Source of the DNA: Alistipes sp.
GTDB taxonomy: Bacteria; Bacteroidota; Bacteroidia; Bacteroidales; Rikenellaceae
NCBI GenBank assembly: GCA_021202985.1
Contig: JAJQCA010000046.1
Location: 19,217 to 83,216 of the forward strand
Length of the DNA stretch: 64,000 bases
Direction of reading: 5' to 3'
Below are positions 36,691 to 37,548 of this stretch, piece after piece (the first letter of the stretch is position 1; the number at the start of each line of letters is the position of its first letter). Under the pieces are notes generated by a model. The model worked only from the letters and a program-made list of their open reading frames with translations, made no database searches and was not told where the DNA came from. Both the position numbers and the translations under genes were made by a program.

Positions 36691-37299
36691 TTACGATATT
36701 TTCAGCAAAACCCATTTGAGGTACACGTCCTGCGACCATTGCCCGGGATGGGACCGGAGTTCGACGCCGCCGGGAACCGGGCGGACAAGATAAACGAAGT
36801 CCTCGTAACGGCTGACGGCGCCGTCCGGCCAGTAGGTGGAATTATCGACCGTCAAAATCCCCTCCCCGGGGTAATAGCTGAACGGCCTCCCTGAACCGGC
36901 TTTACTATGCTCGACACCGCCCGCACCGCCTCCGGCATCCACGTAAACCATACCGCCGTAGACCGTTTCTCCCTCCCCCGCTTCAACCGGACGGACATCG
37001 TAAAAATGCCAGACAGGGCCTGCCGCCGACCCGTAATCCTCAGGGCGGCAACCATCGCCGGAGTCAATCCCGCCAGCGGCCAGGTCCGGAATATACCGGA
37101 TTCCTGCCGGTACCCACTCCCGGCCGTCATGCGAAACGAAAGATTCCGCCGAACGGAACGCCCCATCGAAAAGACACCGGAGCAGCTCACTATCCGGGCC
37201 GCATGCTTGGCCGGCAAAATCTTCAACGGCGGTTACGGTATCGCCGCACTCCCTCGTCCGGGGGGCGGTAACGGTTGGCGGGAAGTCGTTCTTTGCCAT
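36691..37299 (-). CDS. Lipocalin-like orphan protein, family member B (202 aa)
   Basis: 'VWHFYDVRPVEAGEGETVYGGMVY...RPFSYYPGEGILTVDN...PGQWSQDVYLKWVLLKIS' pattern shared with member A; starts MAK like member A. Confidence 0.72.
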   Translation of the reverse strand: MAKNDFPPTVTAPRTRECGDTVTAVEDFAGQACGPDSELLRCLFDGAFRSAESFVSHDGREWVPAGIRYIPDLAAGGIDSGDGCRPEDYGSAAGPVWHFYDVRPVEAGEGETVYGGMVYVDAGGGAGGVEHSKAGSGRPFSYYPGEGILTVDNSTYWPDGAVSRYEDFVYLVRPVPGGVELRSHPGQWSQDVYLKWVLLKIS

Positions 37300-37328
37300 G
37301 GCGGGAAGGTATTGGCGCGCCCGGCAAT

Positions 37329-37535
37329 AAAAAGGGGCGCAGGTTCAACTTCCGGTCGAGAGGTATGAGCGTACCCTGAAAGAGGAAGTTGTAGCCACGC
37401 CCCGGCCGATGCCCGGACCATCCGGGCATAGCAAGGGCAAGCAACATCTATATCTCTTCCAGAAACTTCCCCGGCGGGGAAGGTGCTCATTTTCTCGACC
37501 GGTATAAAGGTTATTCGCCTTTAAATAATATGTCT
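37329..37535 (-). ncRNA. Structured leader RNA, copy 2, upstream of family member B
   Basis: Helices CTTCCCC/GGGGAAG, CTGGAAGAG/CTCTTTCAG, GTTG/CAAC, ATGCCCGGA/TCCGGGCAT, TGAGC/GCTCA, CCGGTCGAGA/TCTCGACCGG, pseudoknot GGGGCG/CGCCCC, then UUUUU. Confidence 0.8.
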
Positions 37536-37540
37536 CCCTG

Positions 37541-37548
37541 CAAAGATA
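37541..37548 (-). promoter_or_regulatory. -7 promoter element TATCTTTG upstream of leader RNA copy 2
   Basis: TAnnTTTG match at the same distance from the RNA as in the other copies. Confidence 0.5.

What the first reader, a model, noticed from the sequence alone, without database searches (positions are those of the whole stretch)
37299..37548. Leader RNA copy 2: compensatory changes in every major helix
On the minus strand after TATCTTTG (37541-37548): TAAAGG-CGAATAA-CCTTTA, CCGGTCGAGA/TCTCGACCGG, TGAGC/GCTCA, CTTCCCC-GCC-GGGGAAG, CTGGAAGAG/CTCTTTCAG (one mismatch), ATGCCCGGA-TGG-TCCGGGCAT, and pseudoknot GGGGCGTGG (37395-37403) with the downstream GCGCCCC (37334-37340). Stem sequences differ from copies 1 and 3, so pairing rather than sequence is what is kept.
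Basis: seen in the sequence. Interest (0 to 1): 0.88.

Follow-up and report, generated by a model that had tools for sequence, protein, structure and literature searches.

The report
Bacteroidota-wide switching leader RNA
The spot in the window is one of several copies of a roughly 220-letter folded RNA, absent from the RNA family database Rfam 15, that occurs across the phylum Bacteroidota, usually just upstream of genes, and that can apparently fold in two mutually exclusive ways like a switch.

Summary
Copy 2 (37323-37524, minus strand) folds far better than chance (z -6.4). It belongs to an RNA family with no Rfam match: 44/200 genomes of the family Rikenellaceae, 1-8 copies each, and 41/300 genomes across the phylum. 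A model built only from members outside Rikenellaceae still recovers all three window copies. Across 103 distinct aligned copies, 93% of helix cells pair and 55 of 58 pairs show two-sided compensatory changes.

The pseudoknot is longer than reported (17 of 19 pairs) and abuts a U-tract. Its 3' extension competes with another covarying helix (P6) for the same nucleotides. Strands 1:2, 2:3 and 3:4 each covary in two separate sequence sets, while non-partner strands do not. This is the logic of a transcription attenuator or riboswitch, inside a pseudoknotted scaffold.

An upstream -7 box, the 3' U-tract and a downstream same-strand gene (NPF proteins 22-26 nt away in the window genus; TonB receptors, sigma factors and regulators elsewhere) favour a switchable leader. 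Against a purely cis role: some Alistipes copies have no gene to control yet keep every helix. Ligand or signal is unknown; expression is untested.

The parts
37541..37548 (-). Bacteroidota-type -7 box TATCTTTG
   Evidence: same motif upstream of 69/99 family members against 3% background
37323..37524 (-). Copy 2 of the structured RNA (covariance-model match)
   Evidence: no Rfam match at E<=1
37505..37523 (-). P1 hairpin TAAAGG/CCTTTA
37449..37506 (-). Strand 1 (TATACC 37506-37501) with strand 2 start (GATATA 37454-37449), helix 1:2, 5 of 6 pairs here; overlaps the 3' side of P1 and the outer pairs of P2 and P5
37352..37502 (-). P2 37502-37493 with 37361-37352
37366..37489 (-). P3 37489-37485 with 37370-37366
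37466..37482 (-). P4 hairpin CTTCCCC/GGGGAAG (missing in most members outside Rikenellaceae)
37376..37462 (-). P5 37462-37454 with 37384-37376 (8 Watson-Crick pairs and one G.U)
37385..37448 (-). P6, helix 2:3: GATGTTG 37448-37442 with CAACTTC 37391-37385 (6 of 7 pairs)
37409..37429 (-). P8 hairpin ATGCCCGGA-TGG-TCCGGGCAT
37334..37403 (-). Extended pseudoknot, helix 3:4: 37403-37385 with 37352-37334, 17 of 19 pairs
37326..37334 (-). U-tract CTTTTTATT directly after strand 4 (terminator-like)
37317..37322 (-). GGGCGC, alternative partner of strand 4 (GCGCCC)
   Evidence: l2:downstream z -3.9 against 0.1 in the control stretch
36691..37299 (-). Downstream ORF, 202 aa, NPF/FYDVRP small-protein family, start codon about 23 nt after the RNA match
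33999..34200 (-). Copy 1 of the RNA; -7 box 34222-34215; its ORF 33527-33976
51487..51688 (+). Copy 3 of the RNA; -7 box 51469-51476; its ORF 51713-52198

Best explanation
A cis-acting leader RNA that chooses between two folds, a riboswitch-like or attenuator-like element. Strands 1 (TTATACC), 2 (GGTATAAnnGTTGT), 3 (GGGGCGnGGnnACAnCTT) and 4 (AAGnTGnnnCCnGCGCCC) can pair 1:2 with 3:4, or 2:3. Helix 3:4 lies directly against a U-tract and should end transcription early or hold the pseudoknotted fold. Helix 2:3 (P6) takes strand 3 away, frees strand 4 (which can then pair with GGGCGC further on), and should let polymerase reach the gene. P2-P5 and P8 are the scaffold or sensor. Shown by computation: the helices, the competing pairings, the promoter motif, the U-tract and the gene positions. 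Inferred: termination, read-through, direction of control, and that there is a signal; the signal is unknown.
For: Nested helices: 93.3% of cells paired, 55 of 58 pairs with two-sided changes, score 0.611 against 0.206 shuffled. Pseudoknot and 1:2: 94.6% paired, 14 of 19 pairs with two-sided changes, score 0.263 against 0.195 shuffled and at most 0.118 slid. Swap tests in Rikenellaceae: 3:4 extension z -10.4, 3:4 core -5.0, 2:3 -7.0, 1:2 (TTTATACC:GGTATA) -9.7, controls -2.0 to +3.3. Swap tests in 53 sequences outside the window's family: 3:4 -10.7, 1:2 -6.4, 2:3 -3.1, controls -1.7 to +1.0; P6 pairs there change on both sides. Promoter motif 69/99, U-tract 94/99. In the window genus the NPF genes start 22-26 nt after the RNA. 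Outside the family the first downstream ORF is on the same strand in 51 of 55 loci by my reading of the table, and 15 of 36 scanned are TonB-dependent receptors. Tandem copies precede one gene in the window's genome.
Against: In Rikenellaceae the first ORF downstream is on the opposite strand in 22 of 89 copies, and copies without a gene keep P6 at least as stable and 3:4 nearly as stable, so a cis role does not explain every copy. In many loci outside the family the gene starts 200-670 nt away. Downstream genes share no function that suggests one ligand. Part of helix 1:2 (CAAC:GTTG) shows no covariation in Rikenellaceae, and 2:3 is the weakest of the three in the second set (its sub-strand test f2:h2 gave -0.1 there). 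No expression data.
Confidence: 0.55

Rival explanations
1. A discrete, multi-copy trans-acting noncoding RNA (its own promoter to U-tract) that works by itself or in an RNA-protein complex. Neighbouring genes are hitch-hikers or partners, and the alternative helices are folding intermediates or conformations of the finished RNA.
For: Promoter motif and U-tract frame the RNA; 22/89 Rikenellaceae copies have an opposite-strand gene next yet are conserved with all alternative helices; many Alistipes copies have a local terminator hairpin before the U-tract.
Against: The 22-26 nt spacing to the NPF genes in the window genus and the 51/55 same-strand genes outside the family are not expected of a free-standing RNA gene.
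Confidence: 0.28
2. The RNA is the control or guide part of a two-part RNA-protein module whose partner is the regulator beside it: divergent XRE-type HTH genes across the phylum, NTase-HEPN genes in Alistipes mobile elements.
For: 17 of 29 divergent upstream neighbours outside the family match HTH_3; most close NTase-HEPN homologues in the family (about 20 of the 24 best, by reading together) lie divergently about 190-400 nt from an RNA copy.
Against: No NTase-HEPN homologue in the window's genus; the window copies have no HTH neighbour; the partners are not one protein family.
Confidence: 0.1
3. A DNA-level element (recombination site or repeat) whose inverted repeats only look like RNA helices.
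For: Multi-copy and sometimes in mobile elements with integrase and relaxase genes.
Against: Many G.U pairs are tolerated, pairing is pseudoknotted and strand-specific, and a promoter motif and U-tract lie on the matching strand.
Confidence: 0.03

Closest known systems
Classical 1-2-3-4 transcription attenuators (trp-type logic)
   Same: Strand 2 pairs with 1 or 3, and strand 3 with 2 or 4; helix 3:4 is followed by a U-tract.
   Different: No leader peptide was looked for systematically or noticed; helix 3:4 is a long-range pseudoknot across a five-helix scaffold; genes are not one pathway.
Pseudoknot riboswitches with a terminator platform (fluoride, ZTP, preQ1-I; from own knowledge)
   Same: A conserved pseudoknot shares a strand with a termination decision in a 5' leader.
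   Different: About 200 nt, different helices, no common downstream function, no ligand known, no Rfam match.
Bacteroidales-1 RNA (RF01693), Flavo-1 (RF01705), 6S-Flavo (RF01685)
   Same: Bacteroidota noncoding RNAs of unknown or housekeeping role (PMC2864571).
   Different: None of these models matched any tested copy.
Rfp18 sRNA of Flavobacterium psychrophilum (PMC9723704)
   Same: A structured sRNA conserved in Flavobacterium.
   Different: Its sequence was not seen in the main-text passages read, so identity with this family was not tested.

Membership tests
Any Rfam 15 family | Covariance-model score at or near the gathering threshold | tested here: not met
   Window copy 2, L003, L022, L061, L030, L108, L109, L132-L136: no relevant match
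Transcription attenuator / riboswitch-type leader (kind, not family) | Mutually exclusive helices, each evolutionarily supported | tested here: met
   2:3 and 3:4 share strand 3 and both covary in two separate sets
Transcription attenuator / riboswitch-type leader (kind, not family) | Terminator-like helix next to a U-tract | tested here: met
   94/99 with at least 6 U in 8 at the 3' end against 14% background; helix 3:4 abuts it
Transcription attenuator / riboswitch-type leader (kind, not family) | Located in the 5' leader of a gene | tested here: inconclusive
   Yes in the window genus and mostly outside the family; not for 22/89 Rikenellaceae copies
Riboswitch | Direct binding of a small ligand | not testable with these tools
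   Needs in-line or SHAPE probing
tRNA or tmRNA | ARAGORN match | tested here: not met

The most novel reading that the evidence does not exclude
A new phylum-wide class of bistable pseudoknotted leader RNA, an orphan riboswitch-like class that senses an unknown signal and controls surface receptors, sigma factors, response regulators and mobile-element regulators in Bacteroidota, possibly with the adjacent XRE-type protein as its RNA-binding partner.
Probability: 0.3. Interest if true: 0.92.

Novelty: new variant of a known kind. Interest (0 to 1): 0.82.

Why it matters
A structured RNA with covariation support in about 60 base pairs, present in about one in seven sampled Bacteroidota genomes and absent from Rfam, points to a regulatory layer not catalogued for a major gut and environmental phylum. 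It sits before TonB-dependent nutrient receptors, sigma factors and regulators, so a ligand or protein partner could be sought directly. Its two competing folds give precise, testable mutations.

Tried and rejected
Known RNA families: none in Rfam for the window or for further family, order and phylum loci at E<=1. tRNA or tmRNA: none at the element. Phage or plasmid origin: no blastn match for one Alistipes copy and no viral contig with the 5' motif. A full-length helix 1:2 including CAAC:GTTG: no covariation in Rikenellaceae. P6 kept only where a gene follows: not so. Function from the downstream protein: no Pfam match, two to five homologues in 5.8 billion proteins, AlphaFold model too poor to use (mean pLDDT 44), so no fold search was made; the weak hhalign match of the NPF protein to the C-terminus of XRE regulators (probability 47%) is only a hint. 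Defence models (PADLOC): none convincing. Literature searches found no description of this RNA; Fremin and Bhatt 2021 (PMC8040213) list 3161 unnamed candidate motifs whose tables I could not open, so a fragment may be listed there.

Full report
Observation. The 252-nt RNA folds at -113 kcal/mol against -82 +/- 5 for shuffles, z -6.4. Two corrections: P5 contains a G.U pair, not a mismatch, and the pseudoknot is not 7-9 pairs but 17 of 19 (GGGGCGTGGCTACAACTTC with GAAGTTGAACCTGCGCCCC), ending directly at CTTTTTATT.

Family. A covariance model from five genus sequences found the RNA in 44 of 200 genomes of the family, 13 of 22 genera, with up to 8 copies per genome. One of these genomes is Alistipes sp. 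dk3624 (contig length as), so the family is Rikenellaceae. A model from the Rikenellaceae alignment found shorter copies, nearly all single, in 13 other genomes of a 300-genome sample of the phylum. A third model, built only from 16 such members outside Rikenellaceae, found 41 of 300 genomes, 26 of 143 genera, and recovered all three window copies (copy 2 at 87 bits, copy 1 at 79, copy 3 at 47). Homology therefore runs both ways. None of the tested copies matches Rfam 15.

Structure. On 103 distinct rows 93.3% of cells pair, 55 of 58 pairs change on both sides, and the covariation score is 0.611 against 0.206 in shuffles and at most 0.10 in slid structures. That alignment was fitted to the structure, which favours it; RNAalifold run without the model structure found two-sided changes in 40 of 41 pairs. 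In the second set (59 rows, 53 of them outside the family) the score is 0.775 against 0.220. P4 is absent from most members outside Rikenellaceae.

Competing helices. An unguided scan of column pairs showed strong covariation between columns 264 and 318, outside the nested model (GC 52, AU 33, GU 6); this extends the pseudoknot. The same strand also forms P6. Swapping strands between copies tests each pairing without choosing a register: pseudoknot core z -5.0, extension -10.4, P6 -7.0, TTTATACC:GGTATA -9.7, with controls between -2.0 and +3.3. In the set outside the family: pseudoknot -10.7, 1:2 -6.4, 2:3 -3.1, controls -1.7 to +1.0. Strand 2 thus has two supported partners (1 and 3), and so has strand 3 (2 and 4). 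Strand 4 has further possible partners: a stretch just downstream (z -3.9, control 0.1) and, in many Alistipes copies, its own 5' neighbour as a local terminator hairpin (for example AGGAGG/CCTCCT before the U-tract). The z-scores are not probabilities, since the sequences are related; the negative-control strands carry the same relatedness.

Transcription unit. TAnnTTTG lies within 80 nt upstream in 69 of 99 copies (background 3%), and at least 6 U in 8 at the 3' end in 94 of 99 (background 14%). In the window genus the NPF-type genes begin 22-26 nt after the RNA match. Other downstream genes in Rikenellaceae are XRE-type and AraC-type regulators, a YpsA/SLOG protein and unknown proteins. Outside the family the first ORF downstream is on the same strand in 51 of 55 loci (my count; ORF calling was mechanical); 15 of 36 scanned are TonB-dependent receptors, 3 sigma factors, others response regulators or secreted proteins. 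Of 29 divergent upstream proteins 17 match HTH_3.

Function. The best reading is a switchable leader: 1:2 plus 3:4 with a U-tract as one state, 2:3 as the other. The helices, motifs and positions are computed; termination, antitermination and the signal are inferred. The main difficulty is that in Rikenellaceae 22 of 89 copies have their nearest downstream ORF on the other strand, and those copies keep both competing helices (P6 even more stable, p 0.015; 3:4 slightly less stable, p 0.019). Either such copies act in trans, or the finished RNA has a function besides attenuation. I put the leader switch at 0.55 and a trans-acting RNA at 0.28.

Novelty. As a kind it resembles attenuators and pseudoknot riboswitches; as a family it is new to Rfam 15 and was not found in the literature searched. 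I could not open the tables of PMC8040213, so an unnamed fragment may already be listed.

Noticed in passing
L120-L130 (Alistipes genomes), e.g. L125:6566-7444 with RNA at L125:6162: NTase-HEPN fusion genes (PF05168 + PF01909) lie divergently about 190-400 nt from an RNA copy in most close homologues, in regions with integrase, relaxase and excisionase-like genes.
   Followed up: partly
L021, L061, L075, L087 upstream regions: Some Alistipes copies lack the TAnnTTTG box and share CTTAAAAGAAAC-N-ATGAAACGG instead, perhaps a second promoter type, followed by an extra hairpin CTCGGCATAGCCGACGG.
   Followed up: no
L063 and L077 downstream of the RNA: A 38-residue ORF MRRT(D/E)Y..DIRY..FPQPH..RFYY.GIW is conserved between two copies; its start region can pair with the downstream GGGCGCA stretch.
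   Followed up: no
L022, L057, L069, L075, L021, L088 downstream of the RNA: A second conserved hairpin with compensatory stem changes, GGATTGCACCnGnC...GnCnGGCGGAATCGGTA.
   Followed up: no
L003:990-1710 (G000:C74): Three copies of the RNA in tandem (the first degenerate) before one NPF-type gene.
   Followed up: partly
window 1-434, 31474-31983, 34306-34766, 36200-36693, 50870-51412: Dispersed imperfect repeats AGATTCTTCGCTnCGCTCAGAATGACAT (18 copies), typical intergenic repeats.
   Followed up: no
window 42780-43229 (-): DUF6678 protein; three nearby copies of GGTAAGATTATCGAACC-like sequence flank short genes (42729, 43287, 43976).
   Followed up: no
L131:3200-4060: A gene that looks like a reverse transcriptase about 2 kb from an RNA copy.
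   Followed up: no
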